This document shows positions 23,713 through 44,544 of a DNA stretch of 64,000 nucleotides, in pieces (position 1 is the first letter of the stretch; each line of letters begins with the position of its first letter). The stretch is from Wenjunlia vitaminophila DSM 41686 (lineage in GTDB: Bacteria > Actinomycetota > Actinomycetes > Streptomycetales > Streptomycetaceae). Where the stretch lies: contig NZ_KB904635.1 of assembly GCF_000380165.1 (NCBI RefSeq), positions 210,484-274,483 on the forward strand, given 5' to 3'. Below the pieces are notes generated by a model. It did not search any database. It was not told where the DNA came from and saw nothing but the letters and a program-made list of their open reading frames with translations. The position numbers and the translations under genes are program-made.

Positions 23713-24534
23713 GTGAACGCTTCTGCTGACTCGGAGGACTTCTCCGACCCCCACGCCGCCGCCGATGCCGCCGCTGCCAGGCTCCGCGAGCTGACCGGTG
23801 CCGCGTCCCACGACGTCGCCCTGGTCATGGGCTCCGGCTGGGTCCCCGCCGCCGACAGCCTCGGCGCTCCCGACCACGACCTCCCGATGACCGACCTGCC
23901 CGGCTTCGCCAAGCCCGGGGTGGAGGGACACGCCGGACGCATCCGTTCGGTCGCCCTCGGTTCCACCCGGGCCCTGGTCTTCCTCGGGCGCACCCACCTG
24001 TACGAGGGCCGCGGCGTGGCCGCGGTCGCCCACGGAGTGCGCACCGCGGTGGCCGCCGGCTGCAAGACGGTGGTGCTCACCAACGGCTGCGGCGGACTGC
24101 GGGACACCTTCTCCCCCGGACAGCCCGTCCTGATCAGCGACCACATCAACCTCACCGGCGTGTCACCGATCGTCGGCGCCAACTTCGTGGACCTCACCGA
24201 CCTGTACTCCCCCCGGCTGCGCGCCCTGTGCCGGGAGGTCGACCCCAGCCTCGCCGAGGGGGTCTACGTGCAGTTCCGCGGCCCCCAGTACGAGACCCCG
24301 GCAGAGATCAGTATGGTTCGCGCCATAGGTGGCGATCTGGTGGGCATGTCCACCACCCTTGAGGCGATAGCCGCCCGCGAGGCCGGAGCCGAAGTGCTCG
24401 GCATCTCCCTGGTCACCAACCTCGCGGCGGGAATGACCGGGGAGCCGCTGAGCCACGAGGAGGTGCTGGAGGCCGGGCGCGGCTCGGCCACCCGGATGGG
24501 TGCCCTGCTGGGACGGGTGCTGGAACGCGTCTGA
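23713..24534 (+). CDS. Purine nucleoside phosphorylase (class II)
   Basis: Cleaves inosine and guanosine (and deoxy forms) with phosphate to the free base and (deoxy)ribose-1-phosphate. The 273 residues fit the trimeric class: the phosphate loop [14 protein letters not shown] with its catalytic His, TNGCGGL, the purine-binding Glu in QYETPAE and the Asn in VTNLAAG, a Glu/Asn pair that suits 6-oxopurines. The start is GTG at 23713, likely leaderless, under the CTACGCGCGTAG dyad. The mutase gene follows 119 bases downstream on the same strand. It acts after adenosine deaminase in purine salvage. Confidence 0.95.
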
Positions 24535-24653
24535 GTCCACCCGGTCCCGACCGTGACCGCCGTGCAACCGGGCGCACGCGGAACACCACTGGGGCAACGA
24601 ACGTGCCCGAACCAGAACACATGCCCAGAGCACACAGGACACAGGAGACGCAG

Positions 24654-26372
24654 GTGGGAACCGATCTGGCAGAACTGGCACGGGCCTGGTTGGCCGAGGA
24701 CCCCGACCCGCGGACCCGGGACGAGCTGAGCGCGCTGCTCACCGCCGCGACCGGCTCCCCGCCCGACGCCCGGGCCGAGGCGGAGCTGGCCGACCGGTTC
24801 GCGGGAACCCTCCAGTTCGGCACGGCGGGACTGCGCGGCGAACTCGGCGCGGGCCCCAACCGGATGAACCGCGTCGTGGTGATCCGTGCCGCCGCCGGGC
24901 TCGCCGCGTACCTGCGGCAGCGGGCGGAACCGGCCGGCGAGCCGGGGCTCGTGGTGGTCGGTTACGACGCCCGACACCGGTCCGCGGAGTTCGCCAGGGA
25001 CACCGTCGCGGTGATGGTCGGGGCCGGGCTGCGGGCCGCGTTGCTGCCCCGTCCGCTGCCCACCCCGGTGCTCGCGTTCGCCGTGCTGCACCTCGGGGCC
25101 GCGGCGGGGGTGATGGTGACGGCGAGCCACAACCCGCCGCAGGACAACGGGTACAAGGTGTACCTCGGCGACGGGATGCAGATCGTGCCCCCCGCGGACG
25201 CCCAGATCTCCGCCGCGATCGAGGCGGTGGGCCCGCTCGCCGGTGTCCCGCTGGCCGAGTCCGGCTGGGAGACGTTGGACGACGCCGTGGTCGAGGCGTA
25301 CCTGGACCGCGCCACCGACGTGGTGCACGGCGGCTCCTCCCGTGACGTCTCCGTGGTCTACACCCCCATGCACGGGGTGGGTGGTGAGGTCCTCACCTCC
25401 GCGTTCACCCGGGCCGGCTTCCCCGCGCCGGCGGTGGTGGCCGAGCAGGCGACCCCCGACCCGGACTTCCCGACCGTGGCGTTCCCCAACCCGGAGGAGC
25501 CCGGGGCGATGGACCTCGCGTTCGCCCTCGCCGAGTCGGCGGAGCCGGACATCGTGATCGCCAACGACCCGGACGCCGACCGGTGCGCGGTCGCCGTGCC
25601 CGTCCCGCCCGGGGCGCACGACGAGGGCGGGGGGCGGAAGTGGCGCATGCTGCGGGGGGACGAGGTCGGGGCGCTGCTCGCGGTGCACCTGGTGAGCAAG
25701 CACGTCGAGGGCACGTTCGCCACCTCCATCGTCTCCTCGTCGCTGCTCGCCCGGATCGCCACGGCCGCGGGCCTGGGGTACGCCGAGACGCTGACCGGTT
25801 TCAAGTGGATCGCCCGCACGCCCGAGTTGGCCTTCGGGTACGAGGAGGCACTGGGCTACTGCGTGGACCCCGGCGGGGTGCGGGACAAGGACGGCATCAC
25901 CGCGGCGCTGCTGGTCGCCGAGCTGGCCGCGGCCCTGAAGCACCAGGGACGTACCCTCACCGACCTGCTGGACGACATCGCGGTGGAGTACGGGCTGCAC
26001 GCCACCGACCAGCTCTCCGTGCGGGTGGCGGACCTGACCACCATCTCCAAGGCGATGACCAGGCTGCGGGAGTCCCCGCCGACCGAGCTCGCGGGGCTGC
26101 GGGTGACCGCGGCCGACGACCTGCGCGCCGGGGCGTTCGGCCTGCCCCCGACCGACGGACTGCGCTACCGGCTGACGCGGGAGGGTGAGGGACCGGCGGT
26201 GTCCTCCGCGCGGGTGGTGGTGCGGCCCAGCGGCACCGAGCCCAAGCTGAAGTGCTACCTGGAGGTGGTGATCCCGGTGACCGCGGCCAACGTCCTGGCC
26301 CCGTGCCGGGTTCTGGCCACGTCGGTGCTCGACGCGCTCAAGGAGGACCTGGCCACCGCGGCCGGGATCTGA
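24654..26372 (+). CDS. pmmB: Phosphohexomutase / putative phosphopentomutase
   Basis: A 572-residue member of the alpha-D-phosphohexomutase family: the phosphoserine loop TASHNPP near residue 160, the metal loop DPDADR near 305, the sugar-specificity loop GFKWIARTPELAFGYEEALGY near 385 and the phosphate loop RPSGTEPK near the end. Its length and the EEALGY segment fit the PGM2-like subgroup, which includes phosphopentomutases. No DeoB-type phosphopentomutase is in the window, so this enzyme, right after purine nucleoside phosphorylase, is a good candidate to convert (deoxy)ribose-1-P to the 5-phosphate. GTG at 24654 has AGGAG six bases upstream. The symbol follows the mycobacterial name; the substrate is inferred. 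Confidence 0.9.
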   Translation: MGTDLAELARAWLAEDPDPRTRDELSALLTAATGSPPDARAEAELADRFAGTLQFGTAGLRGELGAGPNRMNRVVVIRAAAGLAAYLRQRAEPAGEPGLVVVGYDARHRSAEFARDTVAVMVGAGLRAALLPRPLPTPVLAFAVLHLGAAAGVMVTASHNPPQDNGYKVYLGDGMQIVPPADAQISAAIEAVGPLAGVPLAESGWETLDDAVVEAYLDRATDVVHGGSSRDVSVVYTPMHGVGGEVLTSAFTRAGFPAPAVVAEQATPDPDFPTVAFPNPEEPGAMDLAFALAESAEPDIVIANDPDADRCAVAVPVPPGAHDEGGGRKWRMLRGDEVGALLAVHLVSKHVEGTFATSIVSSSLLARIATAAGLGYAETLTGFKWIARTPELAFGYEEALGYCVDPGGVRDKDGITAALLVAELAAALKHQGRTLTDLLDDIAVEYGLHATDQLSVRVADLTTISKAMTRLRESPPTELAGLRVTAADDLRAGAFGLPPTDGLRYRLTREGEGPAVSSARVVVRPSGTEPKLKCYLEVVIPVTAANVLAPCRVLATSVLDALKEDLATAAGI

Positions 26373-31419: not shown

Positions 31420-31999
31420 GGACGTGGGCTCCTCGCGTCGGAGAGTGGGAGTGGTGGACCAGCGGATGGCGGGGAATCACCGGCAATTGAAACGTCTCAG
31501 TGGCCGGAAACATAACCCCGGGACCTACGCCTCACAAGATGCCTGCACGAAGAACTCCCCATCCCCCTCGCGGAGATAGCTTCCCAACCGGGGCATTCCC
31601 ACCATCGCAACCGGGTGTCTCAGCCACGACGCCACCCCCACCCTGAGGCCTGGACAGCACATGGAATGAATTGTTTCAATGACAGCCCACGTGCCCTCTC
31701 CACGAGGAGCGGAACCGGAGGGCCACCCTCCTGTCCCACGGCCACCACCTGCGCGGGGTGCCCGGCCCACACCTTCGTGCGATTGGCCAGCGGGAGCGCC
31801 AGGGAACACCGACCGTCTCGCCGCTCGGCTGCGACAGCGGAGGAGCATGCGTGTCAGGCAACAGGGCCCAACCGATCCGGCACGGAGCGTCACCGACCCA
31901 CTCCGCGTTGTTCCACGCGGCGCGTGACCACGCTACGGTCACCACATGTGTGGGTGCCCGGCCAGTGAGGGACCCGGCAACATCGCCAGAGGAGAGCGG
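31420..31999. promoter_or_regulatory. Divergent region with LacI-like box
   Basis: About 580 bases between the rhamnosidase operon and the STAND gene, clearly less GC-rich than the core genes. TTGAAACGTCTCAG at 31487-31500 resembles the LacI-family palindrome TTGAAACGTTTCAA (two mismatches) and is well placed for the rhamnosidase promoter. A second A/T-rich piece, ATTG-TTT-CAAT, lies near 31670-31682. Open frames in the region have no protein-like features. The STAND ribosome-binding site GAGGAG is at the right end. Confidence 0.5.
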
Positions 32000-34642
32000 A
32001 TGGCCCGAGCGAACCTGCGTGCCGCGTTCATGAGTGGAGTGACATCGACCATCACCGCGCAACAGGTGTTCACTGATCGCACGGACGAGACGGCCGCGTT
32101 CAACCGCTCACTGGTCGCGTTGCACCAGACACTGGACACGGCCGAGGTCTCGCCTGTGGTGGACCGAGTTCAGGGACGCCGCAACGTTCTGACGTTCTAC
32201 GGCGTGGGAGGCATAGGCAAGACCACTCTCTCGCACGAGTTGGAACGCCGTCTCCTGGCAGGAGAGGGTCTGGACGACGTCGCAAACGAGGAACAGAGCG
32301 AAGCGGTTTCCGTGCGTATCGACGTCTCAGAAGAAGGCGCCTCCGACTTGGAGAACCTGTTGCTGCGGCTGCGCGCCGGGCTGGGGCAGTTGGACAACGA
32401 GTGGCCGGCCTTCGATCTGGCGTTGGCGTCGTACTGGGTCCGAGCCCACCCGGGCGAGGCCTTGCAGGAGTTCCTTGACGCCTCACCAGCGACACGGCGT
32501 GCCTCGCGTGGGGTCCGGCTCGGCGAACAGATCGCGGGTAATGTCGCGCAGGCCCTTTCCTCGGACTTCGGCGGTCTGGCCGGGATGGCACAGCGAGCGG
32601 CGCTGGGCACGTATCGAGCGATCAGAGACCGGGTCCGCGAGGGCAGGCTGCTGTCCGAGTGCGAGCTGTTCGCCGAGTTGATCGAGGCGGAGGCCGACTA
32701 CGAGACGCTGTCGTTCTTCCCCTACCTGTTGGCCTGGGACCTGGAACGCAAGGTGCGCCGTCGGAACAAGCGCCCACGTATGTGCGTGTTCCTTGACACC
32801 TTTGAGGTACTCGGTGGTCAAGGTGACCGTACGGCTGAGCGGTACGTGCAGCGTTGCGTCTACCTCATGCCGAACGTGCTCTTCGTCATCACCGGCCGGA
32901 ACCGGGTGGACTGGGCAGACGGTGGTACCAGCGGAGAACTCGATTTCACCGGCCCCGAGCGCTGGCCGAACCTCCACTTCTCCAACCAGACCGCCGAGCC
33001 GCGCCAACACCTCGTCGGTTACCTTTCGGACTCGGACGCGGACAGCTATCTGCAGGAAGCACTGACCCAGGACGGCACGTCGGCCATCCCACCCGAGGTA
33101 CGCTCGCGAATCATCTCTGGCGGGCAGGGATTACCGCTCTATCTGGACCTGTCCGTGTCGCACTTCGTCGAGCTGCTTGCGCGGGGCAGTCAACCCGCGG
33201 TCGAACACTTCGGTGGGACGTTCACGGCCGTCGCCAAGCGGTCCATCAGGGACCTCCCCAGGGAAGAACGAGATCTGGTCCGCACCGCGGCACTCGTCGA
33301 CCGGGTGGATGCCGCGTTGTTGCGGGCCGGGCAACCCACCCTCTCGGACGGCAGTGTGGCACGGTTCCTCCGCAGACCTTTCCTCACCCATGACGACGCC
33401 TACGAGCTCCCGTACGCCCTGCACGGGGCGCTTCGAGCCGCCATCAGCGAGGCCGACCGTGGGCTCCCAGACGGCTGGTCGGACCGCGATCGCGCCGAGG
33501 TCGCCGCTCGGTTGCTACGCCGACTCGGGGAGCGGTCGCAGACAGCGACCGGGCGCGCCGCCGTGGCCCAGGCCCTCGAATCCGGCCTCAAGCTGTCGAG
33601 GGACCACGGGGTCTTCGATGACTGGATGGCCCGAGCCACCCAACATCTGGTGGAGGCGGGACAGTGGACAGCCATCGGTACGAACCTCGACGGCGGTCCA
33701 GCGGAACTCCCGGAGTTCCGTGCGATGCGCGCGGCGATCGAAGGGGTGTGGCTGCGCAGAACCGGTCGCGCGGTCGAGGCGGTCGAAGCGCTTGACGGAG
33801 CCGACGCGGACCTGGCGCCGGAGAGCCTTCCGGGCCAGCTCGTGCGACTGCACCTGGCCCATGCGCTACGCAACCAGGGCGACTACACACGGGCTGCGGG
33901 CATCTACCGCCAACTGCTCGGTGGCGAGTTCGCGACCGACGCGGACTACTGGCTCAGTGACTACGACTACCTCAACGGCCGCTTCACCACCGCGCTGTCC
34001 ACCCTCAGGAACCAGCGTGCGGGCGACGTGGCGCACGAGGGCGAGCGGCTCAGGCTCATCGGACACATCCTGAGGGTCAACGCCCGCTTCGATGACGCCG
34101 CCGCCTCCTACAACGAGGCGATCACTCTGGCCCGTAACGCGGACCTTGCCGCGGCGGAAGCCAAGGCGCTGGCCAATCTCGCCCAGACCGCGTGTTGGTC
34201 TGGGGACACCGCCACCGTGTCCAACGCGGCGGCCCGGGGGAGGGAACTGCTCGACCTGGTCCCCAATCCGGTCGAGCTGGTCAAGATCCGCTCTGCCGAG
34301 GCCGTGTGCTGGGCCATGGCCGACGAACTGGCCAAGGCCAGGGAAGCAGTCGCCGACACCCGCCGACTGGCAGACGCCATCAGCTACCGGGGCGGGCACA
34401 ACCTTGCTGACGTGGCCCAGGTCCTCATCGGCGTCTCCACCGGGGACCACGATGGCGCCCGACGAACTCGAGACGCTCTGGACGAACGGACCCGCGCCTC
34501 GGGCGGCAACATCTACTGGGTGTCCGTCGTCACCAGCTGGCTCGACGGCCTCGCATCAGCCGCCGCCTGGCACCCCACCATCGACTGGGTGGACGGCGCC
34601 GACGCTGCGCTCGGTCGTTGGGTCGCGGTGGTGGCCGCGTAG
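32000..34642 (+). CDS. STAND-type NTPase with TPR-like repeats
   Basis: An 880-residue protein with no signal peptide or membrane segment. A P-loop (GVGGIGKTT, residues 68-76) and a Walker B strand (CVFLDTFEV, about 261-269) define the NTPase. A NB-ARC-like GLPL motif lies at 377-380 and a winged-helix-like region follows. From about residue 560 to the end, helical hairpins such as GDYTRAAGIYRQLL and ARFDDAAASYNEAITLA look like TPR repeats. STAND proteins are ligand-triggered switches used in signalling, cell death and phage defence. Leu378 in the GLPL motif is encoded by TTA. ATG at 32000 has GAGGAG 5 bases upstream. The Gfo/Idh gene follows 35 bases later. No effector domain is recognisable at either end. 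Confidence 0.88.
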   Translation: MARANLRAAFMSGVTSTITAQQVFTDRTDETAAFNRSLVALHQTLDTAEVSPVVDRVQGRRNVLTFYGVGGIGKTTLSHELERRLLAGEGLDDVANEEQSEAVSVRIDVSEEGASDLENLLLRLRAGLGQLDNEWPAFDLALASYWVRAHPGEALQEFLDASPATRRASRGVRLGEQIAGNVAQALSSDFGGLAGMAQRAALGTYRAIRDRVREGRLLSECELFAELIEAEADYETLSFFPYLLAWDLERKVRRRNKRPRMCVFLDTFEVLGGQGDRTAERYVQRCVYLMPNVLFVITGRNRVDWADGGTSGELDFTGPERWPNLHFSNQTAEPRQHLVGYLSDSDADSYLQEALTQDGTSAIPPEVRSRIISGGQGLPLYLDLSVSHFVELLARGSQPAVEHFGGTFTAVAKRSIRDLPREERDLVRTAALVDRVDAALLRAGQPTLSDGSVARFLRRPFLTHDDAYELPYALHGALRAAISEADRGLPDGWSDRDRAEVAARLLRRLGERSQTATGRAAVAQALESGLKLSRDHGVFDDWMARATQHLVEAGQWTAIGTNLDGGPAELPEFRAMRAAIEGVWLRRTGRAVEAVEALDGADADLAPESLPGQLVRLHLAHALRNQGDYTRAAGIYRQLLGGEFATDADYWLSDYDYLNGRFTTALSTLRNQRAGDVAHEGERLRLIGHILRVNARFDDAAASYNEAITLARNADLAAAEAKALANLAQTACWSGDTATVSNAAARGRELLDLVPNPVELVKIRSAEAVCWAMADELAKAREAVADTRRLADAISYRGGHNLADVAQVLIGVSTGDHDGARRTRDALDERTRASGGNIYWVSVVTSWLDGLASAAAWHPTIDWVDGADAALGRWVAVVAA

Positions 34643-37339: not shown

Positions 37340-38338
37340 GTGAGCATGCCCACTGTTCCCGCATACGGCCCCGACGCGGCCGGCCGGCTGGCCGAGATGG
37401 CGGACGTCACCGCCTCGGACAGCGCCCTGCGCCGCTTCCTGCACGGGCTCCCCGGCGTCGACGCGGTCGGCCTCCAGGCCCGCGCCGCTGCGCTCGGCAC
37501 CCGTTCGATCAAGACATCGGCCAAGGCGTACGCCCTTGACCTGGCGATCTCCATGATCGACCTGACCACCCTGGAAGGCGCGGACACCCCCGGGAAGGTC
37601 CGGGCGCTGTCCGCCAAGGGCGTCCGCCCCGACCCGACCGACCCGACCGCCCCTTCGGTCGCCGCCATCTGTGTCTATCCGGACATGGTGCCCGTGGCCC
37701 GGAAGGCCCTGGACGGCACCGGGGTCAAGGTGGCCTCGGTCGCCACCGCCTTCCCCTCGGGTCGGGCCGGGCTCCCGGTCAAGCTGGCGGACACGGCCGA
37801 GGCCGTGTCCGCCGGAGCGGACGAGATCGACATGGTGATCGACCGCGGCGCCTTCCTCGCCGGCAGGTACCGCGAGGTCTTCGAGACGATCGAGGCGGTC
37901 AAGGCGGCCTGCCGCCGTCCCGACGGCACCTCGGCGCACCTGAAGGTCATCTTCGAGACCGGGGAGCTGTCCACCTACGACAACGTGCGGCGCGCCTCCT
38001 GGCTCGCCATGCTGGCCGGCGCCGACTTCATCAAGACCTCGACCGGCAAGGTCGCGGTCAACGCCACCCCACCGGTGACCCTGCTGATGCTGGAAGCGGT
38101 CCGCGACTTCCACGCCGCCACCGGGGTACGGGTGGGACTGAAGCCGGCAGGAGGCATCCGCACCGCCAAGGACGCCATCAAGTACCTGGTGCTGGTGAAC
38201 GAGACGGCGGGTGAGGCCTGGCTGACCGCCGACTGGTTCCGGTTCGGTGCCTCCAGCCTGCTGAACGACCTGCTGATGCAGCGGCAGAAACTGAGCACGG
38301 GCAGGTACTCCGGCCCCGACTACGTGACGGTGGACTGA
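37340..38338 (+). CDS. deoC: Deoxyribose-phosphate aldolase
   Basis: Cleaves 2-deoxyribose-5-phosphate to acetaldehyde and glyceraldehyde-3-phosphate, ending deoxynucleoside breakdown. The 332 residues form the class I TIM barrel. Schiff-base Lys lies in GADFIKTSTGK near residue 233, the second Lys in VGLKPAGGIR near 265, and the Asp in ADEIDMVIDRG. The length is that of the longer actinobacterial form, about 70-80 residues more than E. coli DeoC, the extra being mostly N-terminal. The start is GTG at 37340. The aldehyde dehydrogenase gene begins 4 bases after its stop, so the product acetaldehyde can be oxidised by the next gene in the operon. Confidence 0.96.
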   Translation: MSMPTVPAYGPDAAGRLAEMADVTASDSALRRFLHGLPGVDAVGLQARAAALGTRSIKTSAKAYALDLAISMIDLTTLEGADTPGKVRALSAKGVRPDPTDPTAPSVAAICVYPDMVPVARKALDGTGVKVASVATAFPSGRAGLPVKLADTAEAVSAGADEIDMVIDRGAFLAGRYREVFETIEAVKAACRRPDGTSAHLKVIFETGELSTYDNVRRASWLAMLAGADFIKTSTGKVAVNATPPVTLLMLEAVRDFHAATGVRVGLKPAGGIRTAKDAIKYLVLVNETAGEAWLTADWFRFGASSLLNDLLMQRQKLSTGRYSGPDYVTVD

Positions 38339-38342
38339 CGAC

Positions 38343-39773
38343 ATGGCATTCGAGTACGCACCCGCGCCGCAGTCCCGGGCGATCGTGGACATCGCCCCCT
38401 CCTACGGCCTGTTCATCGACGGGGAGTTCGTCGAGGGCACCAGCGGTGAGCTGCGCAAGACCATCTCCCCGGCGAGCGAGGAGGTCCTCGCCGAGTACAC
38501 CCAGGCCGGCGCCGAGGACGTGGACCGTGCGGTGCGCGCCGCCCGGCGGGCCTTCCCGGCCTGGTCCGCGCTCCCCGGGGCGGAACGCGCCAAGTACCTG
38601 TTCCGGATCGCCCGGATCGTGCAGGAGCGCTCGCGGGAACTGGCGGTGCTGGAGACGCTGGACAACGGCAAGCCGATCCGGGAGACCCGGGACTTCGACC
38701 TGCCGACCGTGGCGGCGCACTTCTTCTACTACGCGGGCTGGGCGGACAAGCTCCCGTACGCGGGGTTCGGCCCCGACCCCAGGCCGCTGGGGGTGGCGGG
38801 GCAGATCATCCCGTGGAACTTCCCGCTGATGATGCTGGCCTGGAAGATCGCCCCGGCGTTGGCCACCGGCAACACGGTGGTGCTCAAGCCGGCGGAGACC
38901 ACGCCCCTGTCCGCGTTGTTCTTCGCGGACGTGTGCCGCCAGGCTGGCCTGCCCAGGGGCGTGGTGAACATCGTCACCGGGGACGGCGCCACCGGTCGCG
39001 CCCTGGTGGAGCACCCCGACATCAACAAGATCGCGTTCACCGGCTCCACCGCGGTGGGCAAGGGCATCGCCCGCGCGGTCGCCGGCACCGACCGCCGGCT
39101 CTCCCTCGAGCTCGGCGGCAAGGCGGCGAACGTGGTCTTCGACGACGCCCCGATCGACCAGGCGGTGGAGGGCATCGTCACGGGCATCTTCTTCAACCAG
39201 GGCCACGTGTGTTGCGCGGGCTCCCGGCTGCTGGTGCAGGAGTCGGTGGCCGAGGAGGTACTGGAGTCGCTGAAGCGGCGGATGGCCACGCTGCGCGTCG
39301 GTGACCCCCTGGACAAGAACACCGACATCGGGGCCATCAACTCGGCCGAACAACTCGCCCGCATCCGGGCGCTCGCCGACACCGGTGAGGCCGAGGGCGC
39401 CGAGCGCTGGTCACCGGCGTGCGAGCTACCGGGTTCCGGCTTCTGGTTCGCGCCGACGCTGTTCACCGGCGTCACCCAGGCCCACCGCATCGCCCGGGAG
39501 GAGATCTTCGGACCGGTGCTGTCCGTGCTCACCTTCCGCACCCCGGCCGAGGCCGTGGAGAAGGCCAACAACACGCCGTACGGGCTCTCCGCGGGCGTGT
39601 GGACCGAGAAGGGCTCGCGCATCCTGTGGATGGCCGACCGGCTGCGCGCCGGTGTGGTGTGGGCCAACACGTTCAACCGGTTCGATCCCTCCTCGCCGTT
39701 CGGCGGGTACAAGGAGTCGGGCTACGGCCGCGAGGGCGGCCGACACGGTCTGGAGGCGTACCTCGATGTCTGA
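38343..39773 (+). CDS. Aldehyde dehydrogenase
   Basis: A 476-residue NAD(P)-dependent aldehyde dehydrogenase, complete with cofactor loops (IIPWNFPLMMLAWKIAPAL, FTGSTAVGKGIA), the catalytic Glu in LELGGKAAN, the catalytic Cys in the NQGHVCCAGSR block and EEIFGPVLSVLTF. Given its position 4 bases after deoC, acetaldehyde is the likely substrate, giving acetate. The next gene overlaps its stop by 8 bases and encodes a shortened family member, suggesting a two-protein complex. Confidence 0.93.
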   Translation: MAFEYAPAPQSRAIVDIAPSYGLFIDGEFVEGTSGELRKTISPASEEVLAEYTQAGAEDVDRAVRAARRAFPAWSALPGAERAKYLFRIARIVQERSRELAVLETLDNGKPIRETRDFDLPTVAAHFFYYAGWADKLPYAGFGPDPRPLGVAGQIIPWNFPLMMLAWKIAPALATGNTVVLKPAETTPLSALFFADVCRQAGLPRGVVNIVTGDGATGRALVEHPDINKIAFTGSTAVGKGIARAVAGTDRRLSLELGGKAANVVFDDAPIDQAVEGIVTGIFFNQGHVCCAGSRLLVQESVAEEVLESLKRRMATLRVGDPLDKNTDIGAINSAEQLARIRALADTGEAEGAERWSPACELPGSGFWFAPTLFTGVTQAHRIAREEIFGPVLSVLTFRTPAEAVEKANNTPYGLSAGVWTEKGSRILWMADRLRAGVVWANTFNRFDPSSPFGGYKESGYGREGGRHGLEAYLDV

Positions 39774-40758
39774 GAAGTCCCGGAAGGGCGCCAGGACCAG
39801 CAGCCGCGACAGGGCAGCCGGCGGGAACGGCGGCGACAGGGCGGGGACCGGCAGGACCGGGAGGACCAGCAGCGACGACAAGGCGGGGAAGACGGCGGTG
39901 CCCGAGCGGGTCAGCGTGTTCAAGACGTACAAGCTGTTCATCGGGGGGAAGTTCCCCCGATCCGAGAGCGGACGGGTGTACGAGGTGACCGACAGCAAGG
40001 GCACCTGGTTGGCCAACGCGCCGCTGGGCTCCCGCAAGGACGCCCGGGACGCGGTGGTGGCCGCTCGCAAGGCGTTCCCCGGCTGGTCCGGTGCCACCGC
40101 CTACAACCGCGGCCAGATCCTGTACCGGGTCGCGGAGATGTTGCAGGGCCGGGCCGACCAGTTCGCGGCCGAGGTCGCGGACGCCGAGGGCCTGTCCAGG
40201 GCCAAGGCCGCGGCGGTGGTGGACGCGGCCGTGGACCGCTGGGTCTGGTACGCCGGCTGGTCGGACAAGGTGGCCCAGGTCGCCGGGTCGGCTAACCCGG
40301 TCGCCGGCCCCTACTTCAACCTCTCCGTCCCCGAACCCACCGGGGTGGTCGCGGTGCTCGCGCCCCAGGACTCGTCGTTCCTCGGACTGGTCTCGGTGGT
40401 CGCACCGGTGGTGGTGACCGGGAACACGGCCGTGGTGCTCGCCGCCGAATCGGCCCCGTTGCCGGCGCTCTCCCTGGCCGAGGTGCTCGCCACCTCCGAT
40501 CTGCCGGGCGGCGTGGTGAACGTGTTGTCCGGCCGGGTCGCCGAGGTCGGCCCGCCCCTCGCCGGCCACCAGGACGTCAACGCCATCGACCTTGCCGGAG
40601 CCGCTGGCCAGCGGGCCGCCGAGCTGGAGGCGGCAGCGGCGGAGAACCTCAAGCGGGTGCTGCGGCCCGCCGGTACCGACTGGACGGCGGACCCCGGACC
40701 TGACCGCATGCTGGCGTTCCTGGAGACCAAGACCGTCTGGCACCCGATCGGCGTGTGA
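39766..40758 (+). CDS. Truncated aldehyde dehydrogenase-like protein
   Basis: A 330-residue protein. After about 45 disordered, basic residues comes the N-terminal half of an aldehyde dehydrogenase (YKLFIGGKFPRSESGRVYEV, PEPTGVVAVLAP, VVTGNTAVVLAAES, PGGVVNVLSGR). The sequence then ends near the equivalent of the LELGGK position, with KTVWHPIGV. There is no catalytic Cys, no EEIFGPV block and no C-terminal oligomerisation region, so it cannot be an active dehydrogenase on its own. The stop is followed within 10 bases by a perfect terminator, which argues against a frameshifted longer gene. ATG at 39766 has GGAGG nine bases upstream and overlaps the upstream gene. Perhaps a non-catalytic partner subunit. 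Confidence 0.85.
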   Translation: MSEKSRKGARTSSRDRAAGGNGGDRAGTGRTGRTSSDDKAGKTAVPERVSVFKTYKLFIGGKFPRSESGRVYEVTDSKGTWLANAPLGSRKDARDAVVAARKAFPGWSGATAYNRGQILYRVAEMLQGRADQFAAEVADAEGLSRAKAAAVVDAAVDRWVWYAGWSDKVAQVAGSANPVAGPYFNLSVPEPTGVVAVLAPQDSSFLGLVSVVAPVVVTGNTAVVLAAESAPLPALSLAEVLATSDLPGGVVNVLSGRVAEVGPPLAGHQDVNAIDLAGAAGQRAAELEAAAAENLKRVLRPAGTDWTADPGPDRMLAFLETKTVWHPIGV

Positions 40759-40764
40759 CCCACT

Positions 40765-40802
40765 GCTCCTCCCGCACCAGGGCGTGCCCGTGCGGGAGGA
40801 GC
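40765..40802 (+). terminator. Terminator of deoC operon
   Basis: A perfect 13-base stem (40765-40777 with 40790-40802) with a 12-base loop starts 7 bases after the stop of the truncated aldehyde dehydrogenase gene. It marks the end of the deoC transcript. Confidence 0.85.
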
Positions 40803-40886: not shown

Positions 40887-41699
40887 TCAGGCCGATGGGG
40901 TGAGCGGCCCGTTCGCCGCGACCTGACCCAGCGAACCCCCCTGCGTCAGCGGGTCGGTGACCAGCCTGGTGCTCACCGGCGGCAGGTCCCCCACCCGGGT
41001 CCCGACGGAGTTGCTCAGCGGATCGACGCCCGTCCCGGCCAAGGGGTTGGGCTTGAGGCCGCCCACCGGCGCAAGCGCCGCTGACACACCGGTGCGCACC
41101 CCCCGGCTGGCCCCGTCCACGCCGGTCGAAGCGGCCGGCGCGACCCGCGCCCCACCCCGCCGGGGAACCGGTGGGTGCCCGTCGGAACGCTCCCGGGGGC
41201 CCTGCCGCGCGACCGTGGGACCCGCAGCCGAACCGACACCGGCGAGCGCGGCGGGCCCGCCGCCGGTCCGCACCGGGGATTCCAGCTCCGGGCCGCGCTG
41301 GAGCTCGGGACCGCGGTACAGCGCCCCCGGGTGCCAGGGCGCCCGGTGCCTCTGCGTTCCCCGCGCGTGACGTCGCCGTACCTGATCCCGCCGTACCTGA
41401 TCCCGCTGTGCTTGGCCTTGCTGTGCCTGGCCTTGCTGTGCCTGGCCTTGCTGTGCCTGACCCCTTGCGTCCTGGCTCGGCGACACCCGCCCCAGCATTG
41501 CTGGCTCTTGGGCTTGCGGGGCCCCGGCCGGGGTGGGAGCCGGGTGCGCGGACGCCGCGACCGGCGGGGGGACCGCGGCGACACAGACCGCGGGCCCGGC
41601 GGCCAGGGCGACGCCGGCGGAGGACACCGCGATGGCGGCACGCACCAGGGCGCGGGGCAGAACGGGCTTACCAGGCTGGGCGTGGCGGCCCTGGGACAC
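40887..41699 (-). CDS. Secreted low-complexity protein with GQAQQ repeats
   Basis: A 270-residue protein with a signal peptide (a basic stretch, then AIAVSSAGVALAAGPAVCVAA) and an Ala/Pro linker. Tandem repeats GQAQQ x3, GQAQR and DQVRR follow (residues about 80-110), then an Arg/His-rich basic part and a Gly/Val/Pro-rich end. No domain is recognisable. Its GC pattern and signal peptide make it look like a true gene, but its function is unknown. I prefer GTG at 41699, which has AGGAGG 8 bases upstream; ATG at 41705 would leave only 2 bases. It is divergent from the uridine-kinase-like gene. Confidence 0.65.
   Translation of the reverse strand: MSQGRHAQPGKPVLPRALVRAAIAVSSAGVALAAGPAVCVAAVPPPVAASAHPAPTPAGAPQAQEPAMLGRVSPSQDARGQAQQGQAQQGQAQQGQAQRDQVRRDQVRRRHARGTQRHRAPWHPGALYRGPELQRGPELESPVRTGGGPAALAGVGSAAGPTVARQGPRERSDGHPPVPRRGGARVAPAASTGVDGASRGVRTGVSAALAPVGGLKPNPLAGTGVDPLSNSVGTRVGDLPPVSTRLVTDPLTQGGSLGQVAANGPLTPSA
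41377..41465 (-). repeat. 15-bp tandem repeats in secreted-protein gene
   Basis: Five complete and one partial copies of a 15-base unit; the three central copies (41107-type register: 41407-41421, 41422-41436, 41437-41451) are almost identical, encoding GQAQQ, and the two flanking copies are diverged, encoding DQVRR. The near identity of the centre suggests recent slippage. Confidence 0.85.
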
Positions 41700-41951
41700 G
41701 GACATATCCTCCTGCTTTCAGCGGTCGAGCACACTGCCACACTCAATGACTACTCACAGTAGCCGTTCGACTGCACGCACTCACTCAACCGCTCTCCATT
41801 TCCCCCGAAGGAGTAATGGAGCGCTACCGGACTACAGGGGCAGCGATTTGACCTTTTGCCCGCTATCGACACGATCTGTCCGATTGAACGGGCGAATCCA
41901 TGGAGAATTCACCAGGTCACCACGCAGGGTGATACTGCACACTGGTGTTCC

Positions 41952-42716: not shown

Positions 42717-43589
42717 TCAGGCGACGAGCTCGCCGAACGACCTCTGCTCGTCACCGGGGTTCAACTGCTCGTCGTCGCGCAGCCGGCGCAGCGAACGCCA
42801 GATGCTGCTCTTGACCGTGCCGACGCTGATCCCGAGTATGTCGGCGATCTCGGGGTCGGTGCGGCCCTCGTAGTAGCGCAGCACCAGCATGGTGCGCTGT
42901 GGCTCGGGCAGTTTGGCCAGCGCCTGCCAGAGCACCGCGCGCAGTTCCGTGCCGCGCATGGCGTCGCAGTCGCCCACGGTCTCGGGCAGTTCCTCGGTCG
43001 GGTACTCGTTGAGCTTGCGCCGACGCCAGGCCGATATGTGCAGGTTGGTCATGGTGCGGCGCAGGTAGCCGCCGACCGCGGCCTTGTCACTGATCCGGTC
43101 CCAGGCACGGTAGGTGCTGAACAGCGCGGTCTGGAGCAGGTCCTCCGCCTCGTGGCGGTCACCGGTCAGGTGGTAGGCGGTCGCGTACAGGGAGGCCCGG
43201 CGCTCCTCGACGTAGGCGGTGAAGTCCGCCTCGGCGTCGCCGCACCGCTGCCCGTTTCCCCCCGGAGCGGGCGCTGCCTGCCCGTACGCAACCGCGCTAC
43301 CCCCGTTTCCCCCGTTGCTCCCCCCGCGCTCGGCGTCGCCGGTCAGCGCGACCATGCGACGCGGTCGGACAGTGGTGCCGGCGGCGCCCCCCCGACGTCC
43401 GCCGGCACCACTCGCCTGGACACCCGGCACCACCCGGGGCTTGCCCGGGAGGACCACGTGGTTGTGCACCCGTCCGGTGCCACGAGCGCACCCCCGCCCG
43501 CCCGCGGCACCGGACTTCTCATCGGCCCGTCCGTGGGCGGCGCGCACATGACGGACTGCGGCGGTGTTTCCTACTTGCAGTGCGTTCAT
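42717..43589 (-). CDS. sigQ: SigE-family RNA polymerase sigma factor SigQ
   Basis: A 290-residue ECF-type sigma factor. The first 120 or so residues are a Gly/Ala/Arg-rich extension. Region 2 follows (SLYATAYHLTGDRHEAEDLLQTALFSTYRAWDRI) and region 4 (LPEPQRTMLVLRYYEGRTDPEIADILGISVGTVKSSIWRSLRRLR). It is divergent from the afsQ1-afsQ2 genes, the arrangement of sigQ in S. coelicolor, where this locus affects antibiotic production and development. ATG at 43589 (MNALQVGNTAAVRHV) fits the Streptomyces protein start and has GGGGG upstream. The upstream AfsQ1-type site at 43717-43732 suggests control by AfsQ1. Confidence 0.9.
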   Translation of the reverse strand: MNALQVGNTAAVRHVRAAHGRADEKSGAAGGRGCARGTGRVHNHVVLPGKPRVVPGVQASGAGGRRGGAAGTTVRPRRMVALTGDAERGGSNGGNGGSAVAYGQAAPAPGGNGQRCGDAEADFTAYVEERRASLYATAYHLTGDRHEAEDLLQTALFSTYRAWDRISDKAAVGGYLRRTMTNLHISAWRRRKLNEYPTEELPETVGDCDAMRGTELRAVLWQALAKLPEPQRTMLVLRYYEGRTDPEIADILGISVGTVKSSIWRSLRRLRDDEQLNPGDEQRSFGELVA

Positions 43590-43716
43590 GACGCGCCCCC
43601 GTTCCGGTGGTGCCGAGTGATCTCCCACAACGGCCGTGCTGGGTGTTTCCTTCCGGCAGTCCCCCGCCGTGGTCAACAAGCCTGTCGGAGCAGTTTCATA
43701 GCGCTGTCCGACGACT

Positions 43717-43732
43717 GTCACAGGCGCGTCAC
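43717..43732. promoter_or_regulatory. AfsQ1-type site GTCAC-N6-GTCAC
   Basis: The divergent sigQ/afsQ1 region contains GTCAC-AGGCGC-GTCAC, an exact match to the direct repeat GTnAC-n6-GTnAC that I recall as the AfsQ1 box. It lies 128 bases before the sigQ ATG and 125 bases before the afsQ1 ATG, so it could act on both promoters. Confidence 0.75.
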
Positions 43733-43857
43733 AGGGGCATCGGGGTCGGCGCACCACCCTCCGAGGGGCGGGATCAGCCGGTTTGTTGGCATATGCCGGG
43801 GTGTTCGCGGGGCGGCTCTCGACCAACTGTCGAAGCGAGCCATGGGTGTGGGACACA

Positions 43858-44544
43858 ATGAGCCCCGTGCCCTTCCTGTTGCTCATCGAGGACGACGACG
43901 CGATCCGCACTGGCCTCGAATTCGCGCTGAGCCGCCAGGGCCACCGTGTGGTGGCCGCGGCCACCGGCGAGGACGGCCTGGAGCGGCTGCGCGAGCAGCG
44001 TCCGGACCTGATCGTGCTTGATGTGATGCTGCCCGGAATCGACGGTTTCGAGGTGTGTCGTCGAATCCGCCGGACCGATCAGCTACCGATCATCCTGCTG
44101 ACCGCCCTCAGCGACGACATCGACGTGGTGGTGGGCCTGGAGTCCGGCGCTGACGACTACGTGGTCAAGCCGGTGCAGCCGAGGGTGCTGGACGCCAGGA
44201 TCCGGGCGGTGCTCCGCCGTGGGGAACGGGACAGTTCCGACTCCGCCGTGTTCGGCAACGTCGTCATCGACCGGTCCGCGATGACGGTCACCAAGAACGG
44301 CAACGACCTCCAGCTCACCCCGACCGAGCTGCGCCTGCTGCTCGAGCTGAGCCGCCGCCCCGGCCAGGCACTGTCCAGGCAGCAGTTGCTGCGCCTGGTG
44401 TGGGAACACGACTACCTCGGCGACTCCCGCCTGGTGGACGCGTGCGTGCAGCGTCTACGCGCCAAGATCGAGGACATCCCGTCGTCGCCCTCGTTGATCC
44501 GTACGGTGCGTGGGGTCGGGTACCGGCTGGACCCGCCCCAGTGA
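43858..44544 (+). CDS. afsQ1: Response regulator AfsQ1
   Basis: A 228-residue OmpR/PhoB-type response regulator. The receiver domain carries the acidic cluster EDDD, the phospho-acceptor Asp in LIVLDVMLPG and the switch Lys in DDYVVKP. The C-terminal winged helix (LTPTELRLLLELSRRPGQALSR through RTVRGVGYRL) binds DNA. It is almost the same as my memory of S. coelicolor AfsQ1. The start is ATG at 43858 with GGGAC just upstream; GTG at 43867 (the annotated Streptomyces style) is the alternative. Its stop overlaps the kinase start (GTGA). Confidence 0.93.
   Translation: MSPVPFLLLIEDDDAIRTGLEFALSRQGHRVVAAATGEDGLERLREQRPDLIVLDVMLPGIDGFEVCRRIRRTDQLPIILLTALSDDIDVVVGLESGADDYVVKPVQPRVLDARIRAVLRRGERDSSDSAVFGNVVIDRSAMTVTKNGNDLQLTPTELRLLLELSRRPGQALSRQQLLRLVWEHDYLGDSRLVDACVQRLRAKIEDIPSSPSLIRTVRGVGYRLDPPQ

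What the first reader, a model, noticed from the sequence alone, without database searches (positions are those of the whole stretch)
39766..40758. Non-catalytic half aldehyde dehydrogenase coupled to an active one
The second gene overlaps the complete aldehyde dehydrogenase by 8 bases and keeps only the N-terminal cofactor half, ending before the catalytic Cys. A perfect terminator starts 7 bases after its stop, so it is not simply a broken longer gene. A catalytically dead partner in a deoC operon is an unusual arrangement and may scaffold acetaldehyde transfer.
Basis: partly seen in the sequence, partly recalled or inferred. Interest (0 to 1): 0.52.

Follow-up and report, generated by a model that had tools for sequence, protein, structure and literature searches.

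The report
Split aldehyde dehydrogenase 16, dead half
An aldehyde-burning enzyme known elsewhere as one long two-part protein is here made as two separate proteins, one active and one inactive, and each half has lost parts that the other keeps, so the inactive half is probably a working partner rather than a broken gene.

Summary
In detail: a 330-aa ALDH-like gene (39766-40758) overlaps the active ALDH by 8 bases, downstream of deoC. It is not a truncated ALDH. Its best solved relative is the C-terminal pseudo-domain of bacterial ALDH16 (6mvr, residues 497-766 of 767); the active ALDH's best relative is the N-terminal domain of the same chain. The two genes are a split ALDH16. The protein does not just stop before the catalytic Cys: it skips the catalytic domain and resumes with the C-terminal oligomerisation strand. 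Of 178 actinobacterial loci examined with the ALDH found, none is fused; 7 of 7 Pseudomonadota loci examined are fused; deoC is the neighbour in both. In 246 Actinomycetes genomes 139 have both halves, 3 only the dead one, 0 only the ALDH. Loss is reciprocal: the active ALDH mostly lacks the oligomerisation hairpin and C-terminal strand that ordinary ALDHs have and the dead half keeps. Best explanation: the dead half is a structural subunit completing the ALDH assembly, in a heteromer that oxidises DeoC's acetaldehyde; complex and substrate are inferred. New variant of a known kind. Acetaldehyde scaffolding is untested.

The parts
37340..38338 (+). deoC, deoxyribose-phosphate aldolase (332 aa, GTG start)
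   Evidence: TIGR00126 deoC, 173.5 bits against cut-off 117.3; Pfam DeoC
38343..39773 (+). active ALDH subunit, counterpart of the ALDH16 N-terminal domain (476 aa); catalytic Cys290, general base Glu256; shortened oligomerisation hairpin, no C-terminal strand
   Evidence: best PDB hit is ALDH16 chain residues 11-474; residue columns; hairpin and tail lengths
39766..40758 (+). inactive subunit, counterpart of the ALDH16 C-terminal pseudo-domain (330 aa; conserved domain from about residue 48)
   Evidence: best PDB hit is ALDH16 chain residues 497-766 of 767, whole-chain E 4.7e-58, that stretch alone 2.8e-44; tree support 1.0 with fused C-terminal domains
39766..39773 (+). 8-base overlap ATGTCTGA of the ALDH stop and the second start, candidate translational coupling
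   Evidence: sequence; by a rule preferring ATG, an 8-base ATG overlap in 88 and a 4-base overlap in 40 of 177 split loci, no chance control
40708..40755 (+). C-terminal oligomerisation strand retained in the inactive subunit (..MLAFLETKTVWHPIGV)
   Evidence: profile of 32 ordinary ALDH C-termini matches it, p 0.003 against 300 shuffles; 167 of 176 pseudo-subunits at p <= 0.01
40765..40802 (+). perfect 13-bp inverted repeat after the stop, possible terminator without a U-run

Best explanation
The two genes encode a split ALDH16. The upstream product is the catalytic subunit, which has lost the parts that ordinary ALDHs use to assemble (the oligomerisation hairpin and the C-terminal strand). 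The downstream product is a pseudoenzyme subunit that has lost the catalytic domain and NAD-contact residues but keeps those parts. The pseudo-subunit binds the catalytic subunit as the C-terminal domain of ALDH16 binds its N-terminal domain, giving a heteromer, most likely two of each, that mimics the classical ALDH tetramer. Overlapping genes may help balanced output. With DeoC it takes deoxyribose-5-phosphate to glyceraldehyde-3-phosphate plus acetate. Shown: homology, gene order, co-occurrence, reciprocal losses, purifying selection. Inferred: physical complex, stoichiometry, dependence of activity on the partner, acetaldehyde as substrate.
For: Each half hits the corresponding half of the same solved ALDH16 chain best; Foldseek with a moderate model ranks three bacterial ALDH16 entries first. 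Tree of the shared region: active ALDH groups with fused N-domains (0.995), dead half with fused C-domains (1.0). The same deoC neighbour in fused (7 of 7) and split loci (80 of 80 named, 53 of 60 unnamed; deoC found in 36 of 40 more, within 210 bp in 33). Co-occurrence 139 both, 3 dead half only, 0 ALDH only, 104 neither of 246. Hairpin 11 residues in 161 of 178 partner ALDHs, 19-20 in 28 of 32 ordinary ALDHs, 22 in 175 of 175 dead halves. Residues after the C-terminal Tyr column: 9 or fewer in 153 of 178 partners, 10 or more in 30 of 32 ordinary ALDHs, median 12 in dead halves. Strand-profile median scores: ordinary 24.2, dead half 17.5, partners -5.1. dN/dS median 0.19 for the dead half, 0.15 for the ALDH (700 pairs). 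Distances of the two halves stay correlated after removing deoC (r 0.57; 0 of 2000 permutations, 95 loci).
Against: No complex was modelled or measured. The AlphaFold model of the dead half is only moderate (mean pLDDT 65.9; residues 1-66, 129-143, which hold the hairpin, and 277-283 below 50), so arm geometry rests on homology. Reciprocal loss has exceptions: 3 of 178 partners have a 20-residue hairpin, 25 of 178 have 10 or more residues at the C-terminus, and 2 of 32 ordinary ALDHs have a 9-residue hairpin. Fused status was checked in 7 loci only, from plasmid records. The paper on the ALDH16 structure was not held; its assembly is known here only from a review passage. One divergent dead half (L148) has no ALDH beside it, and a second copy in G183 (L147) lies beside a mere ALDH fragment.
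Confidence: 0.8

Rival explanations
1. The dead half is a scaffold that docks DeoC onto the ALDH and channels acetaldehyde.
For: deoC is the conserved neighbour in split and fused loci; dead-half distances also correlate with deoC after removing ALDH (r 0.41).
Against: No test of docking was made and none of the results points to it; shared operon membership and common descent can explain the correlation; the conserved features of the dead half match the ALDH assembly arm. It does not exclude the best explanation and could hold on top of it.
Confidence: 0.12
2. It is a decaying truncated paralogue without function.
For: It lacks the catalytic domain; a few loci look decayed or orphaned (L188, L148, L147).
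Against: 61 of 61 family genomes; kept in 20 genomes of 1.2-2.2 Mb of one family, though at least one genome of that family (G084) lacks it; dN/dS about 0.19; the TVWHP end motif in 79 of 79 named and 50 of 58 other complete copies.
Confidence: 0.02
3. It is a regulatory subunit that senses a nucleotide or metabolite through its Rossmann fold.
For: The fold is kept and a Gly of the nucleotide loop is kept in 173 of 175.
Against: The column of Asn169 is Asn in 2 of 175 dead halves and that of Lys192 is Lys in none of 175; a review calls the homologous ALDH16 domain a non-functional cofactor binding domain.
Confidence: 0.08

Closest known systems
Bacterial ALDH16 (PDB 6mvr, 6mvs, 6mvt, 6mvu; LsALDH16 of Loktanella sp., the link of these entries to that name being recalled)
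   Same: Both halves match the corresponding halves of one 767-aa chain; no catalytic domain in the second half; fused relatives in Pseudomonadota also follow deoC directly.
   Different: Two separate overlapping genes; in the window the dead half begins with a low-complexity stretch of about 47 residues before the domain.
Human ALDH16A1
   Same: Named member of the ALDH16 family; described as a pseudoenzyme (PMC8160307 and PMC10650815, passages read).
   Different: There the protein is described as inactive; here one subunit keeps the catalytic Cys and Glu. Its two-domain fused layout is recalled, not tested.
Classical ALDH1/ALDH2-type homotetramers
   Same: Fold, catalytic residues of the active subunit, C-terminal strand of the dead subunit.
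   Different: Each classical subunit carries all three domains; here assembly and catalytic parts are divided between two proteins.

Membership tests
ALDH16 (bacterial, active type) | N-terminal ALDH domain with catalytic Cys and Glu | tested here: met
   Cys290 and Glu256 in the window ALDH; Cys in 174 of 178 partners (3 gapped, 1 Arg), Glu in 174 of 178
ALDH16 (bacterial, active type) | C-terminal ALDH-like pseudo-domain without the catalytic domain | tested here: met
   best hit is that domain, ending at residue 766 of 767; catalytic Cys column empty in 175 of 175
ALDH16 (bacterial, active type) | both domains group with those of fused ALDH16 in a tree | tested here: met
   FastTree local support 0.995 and 1.0, 76 sequences, 241 columns
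ALDH16 (bacterial, active type) | both domains in one polypeptide | tested here: not met
   separate overlapping genes in different frames; 0 fused of 178 actinobacterial loci with the ALDH found (138, 40; recounted). Hence 'split variant', not a plain member
ALDH16 (bacterial, active type) | dimer that mimics the classical tetramer | not testable with these tools
   known from a review passage only
Classical ALDH | oligomerisation hairpin and C-terminal strand in the active subunit | tested here: not met
   window ALDH: hairpin 11 residues (ordinary 19-20 in 28 of 32) and 3 residues after the Tyr column (ordinary median 12)

The most novel reading that the evidence does not exclude
An obligate two-protein ALDH in which active and dead subunits have degenerated reciprocally, and in which the dead subunit also docks DeoC, making a deoxyribose-5-phosphate to acetate complex. 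In many Streptomyces the dead subunit's added Gly/Ser-rich tail ending in Tyr would act in trans on DeoC, as the mobile C-terminal tail of E. coli DERA (recalled) acts in cis.
Probability: 0.07. Interest if true: 0.75.

Novelty: new variant of a known kind. Interest (0 to 1): 0.45.

Why it matters
The second domain of ALDH16 has no catalytic role and its purpose is not settled. A natural split form lets the two halves be expressed, mixed and mutated separately, so the role of the dead half becomes directly testable. It would give a function to many genes beside deoC: the fused relatives seen here are annotated only as 'aldehyde dehydrogenase family protein'. It is also a clear case of reciprocal loss that may have made two subunits depend on each other.

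Tried and rejected
Broken-gene reading: rejected on conservation, purifying selection and a common end point. Recent tandem duplicate of the neighbour: the halves share 33% identity, and the four ALDH16 domain groups do not form one clade in the tree, so the dead half is an old, separate lineage or a long branch. The promoter and terminator scan gave nothing useful. Structure of the dead half from a shallow alignment was only moderate. Literature: the listings (titles and abstract starts) show no split ALDH16, and I read passages of two reviews only; the library lacks most subscription journals, so this is weak evidence of absence. How RefSeq names the split genes was not checked.

Limits and rows dropped. 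The 80 named loci are the best 80 of a capped scan with patterns from the window protein, so they favour near relatives. Family and class tallies include the window's own genome, and in the large searches only the best 6-8 candidates per genome were scored. The partner set of 178 holds 3 rows cut at contig ends (hairpin 0: L239, L248, L251) and one ALDH fragment inside a contig (L147); other atypical hairpins are 6, 9, 10, 12, 14 and 20 residues. In one search, 95 loci passed the completeness filter. In one search, 8 of 79 genomes matched only through ordinary ALDHs (163 bits or less), leaving 71 of 296 with the dead half (330 bits or more). The start-overlap counts have no chance control. The rate correlation is weak evidence because deoC distances are a noisy stand-in for the species tree.

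Full report
What is there. In the window deoC (37340-38338), a complete ALDH (38343-39773) and a 330-aa ALDH-like gene (39766-40758) follow each other; the last two overlap by 8 bases in different frames. The window lies in a 6.4-Mb genome in which this gene has one copy; the other 11 matches are its neighbour and further ALDH-family genes, 35% identical or less. The family is very probably Streptomycetaceae: the closest named records are Streptomyces and allies. Upstream in the window are a PNP-family phosphorylase (23713-24534) and a PGM/PMM-family mutase (24603-26372), which fits deoxynucleoside breakdown ending in DeoC; that pathway reading is inference from family names.

What it is. In the PDB the 330-aa protein matches best a bacterial ALDH16 chain, E 4.7e-58 for the whole chain; the best stretch is its C-terminal part (497-766 of 767), 2.8e-44 on its own, and the next other ALDH has 9.9e-31 (entry titles). 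The 476-aa ALDH matches best the N-terminal part (11-474) of that same chain, E 1.7e-169. In a tree of the shared region the active ALDHs group with the N-terminal domains of fused ALDH16 (support 0.995) and the dead halves with the C-terminal domains (1.0), while all four groups together are not one clade. So the two genes are the two halves of ALDH16, encoded separately, and the dead half is not a recent copy of its neighbour (33% identity).

How widespread. It is in 61 of 61 genomes sampled from the family, 142 of 246 from the class at E <= 1e-32, and 71 of 296 from the phylum at 330 bits or more, with 8 further genomes matching only by ordinary ALDHs. It is kept in 20 genomes of 1.2-2.2 Mb in one family (f25), of which at least one other genome, G084, lacks it. 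The 80 named loci, the best of a capped scan, all have deoC-ALDH-dead half and none is fused. Of 60 further loci that I chose have the ALDH directly upstream, 53 the full triple, none is fused. The 7 exceptions: L171, L192 and L193 lie at contig ends; L139 and L153 have deoC further away; L147, a second copy in G183, has only an ALDH fragment and no deoC in the stretch; L148 is a divergent copy with neither gene. Of 40 loci chosen, 39 have the ALDH (in one, L232, 1.4 kb away), 36 have deoC, within 210 bp in 33, and none is fused; Nonomuraea (L205) is split too. In 7 Pseudomonadota plasmid loci chosen from the rows listed for 183 matching records, the two halves are one protein of about 770-800 aa, directly after deoC in all 7. 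The shared deoC neighbour supports common descent of the whole unit. Which form is older is not settled.

Co-occurrence. On the same 246 genomes, 139 have both halves, 3 only the dead half (G130 and G152, where the contig starts too close for the ALDH, and the divergent G222), none only the ALDH, 104 neither (ALDH threshold 1e-150; sets compared by reading the two lists).

Reciprocal loss. The dead half lacks the catalytic domain, but it does not simply end early: its last residues match the C-terminal oligomerisation strand of ordinary ALDHs (167 of 176 at p <= 0.01 against shuffles; the window at p 0.003). The active partner has mostly lost that strand: 9 or fewer residues after the conserved Tyr column in 153 of 178 (94 have 3), against 10 or more in 30 of 32 ordinary ALDHs and a median of 12 in the dead halves; where partners are longer, the end does not look like the strand as a rule, for strand-profile medians are 24.2 (ordinary), 17.5 (dead), -5.1 (partner). 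The partner also has a shortened oligomerisation hairpin: 11 residues in 161 of 178, against 19-20 in 28 of 32 ordinary ALDHs and 22 in 175 of 175 dead halves. Exceptions are 3 partners with 20 residues and 2 ordinary ALDHs with 9. Fused proteins show the same pattern, 9 in the N-domain and 19 in the C-domain, 7 of 7. That these segments form the ALDH oligomerisation domain is established knowledge of the fold (exact residues recalled). In the dead half the Asn169 column is Asn in 2 of 175 and the Lys192 column Lys in none of 175, and Cys302 and Glu399 have no counterpart, so it probably does not bind NAD in the usual way.

Function and mechanism. The dead half is under purifying selection (dN/dS median 0.19 in 700 random pairs of named loci, partner ALDH 0.15). 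A review passage says that in ALDH16 of Loktanella tertiary contacts mimic the quaternary contacts of other ALDHs and that two subunits mimic the classical tetramer (PMC8160307, passages). The simplest reading is that the two proteins associate as those two domains do, the dead one supplying the assembly arm, in a heteromer of probably two plus two. Overlapping genes (8-base ATG overlap in 88 and 4-base overlap in 40 of 177 split loci) would help balanced output. The substrate is probably acetaldehyde from DeoC. The complex, its stoichiometry, the dependence and the substrate are inferences. The predicted structure of the dead half is moderate (pLDDT 65.9, pTM 0.67); Foldseek ranks three bacterial ALDH16 entries first, with TM-scores of only about 0.58, so it adds little.

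Open point. In 66 of 79 named loci with a complete end, the dead half carries an extra tail after the strand that ends in Gly-Ser-(Ser/Ala/Gly)-Tyr; 13 of 79 and the window lack it. A similar tail occurs in one other actinobacterial family (L162) and in the fused protein of Paracoccus (L202). It resembles, from memory, the mobile tail of E. coli DeoC. DeoC beside the dead half mostly ends in Asp whether or not the tail is there. This is unexplained.

Verdict. Real, conserved and most likely functional; a split variant of a known family, not a new kind of system.

Noticed in passing
L038-L117 (66 of 79), L162, L202; absent in the window: Extra C-terminal tail of the dead half ending in Tyr, mostly Gly-Ser-(Ser/Ala/Gly)-Tyr, recurring in separate lineages including a fused ALDH16.
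   Followed up: partly
L188 (genome G015): Partner ALDH (49% identity) has Arg in place of the catalytic Cys and the dead half has lost its KTVWHP motif: the two halves seem to degenerate together.
   Followed up: partly
L148 (genome G222): Divergent dead half (41% identity) without ALDH or deoC found beside it.
   Followed up: no
L147 (genome G183, contig C168): Second copy of the dead half beside only a C-terminal fragment of the ALDH; the other copy in that genome (L146) has the full triple.
   Followed up: partly
genome G292, contigs C47, C58, C70: Three copies of the ALDH and dead-half pair, each at a contig end; real copies or an assembly effect.
   Followed up: no
window 23713-26372: PNP-family phosphorylase and PGM/PMM-family mutase upstream, fitting nucleoside breakdown into DeoC.
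   Followed up: partly
window 31946-34642: 898-aa open frame without a Pfam match between the mutase and deoC.
   Followed up: no
window 42717-44544: Sigma-70 family factor on the minus strand next to a response regulator on the plus strand.
   Followed up: no
window 41370-41470: Short repeats seen by eye in a minus-strand open frame (40887-41705), coding Gln/Gly/Ala-rich units.
   Followed up: no
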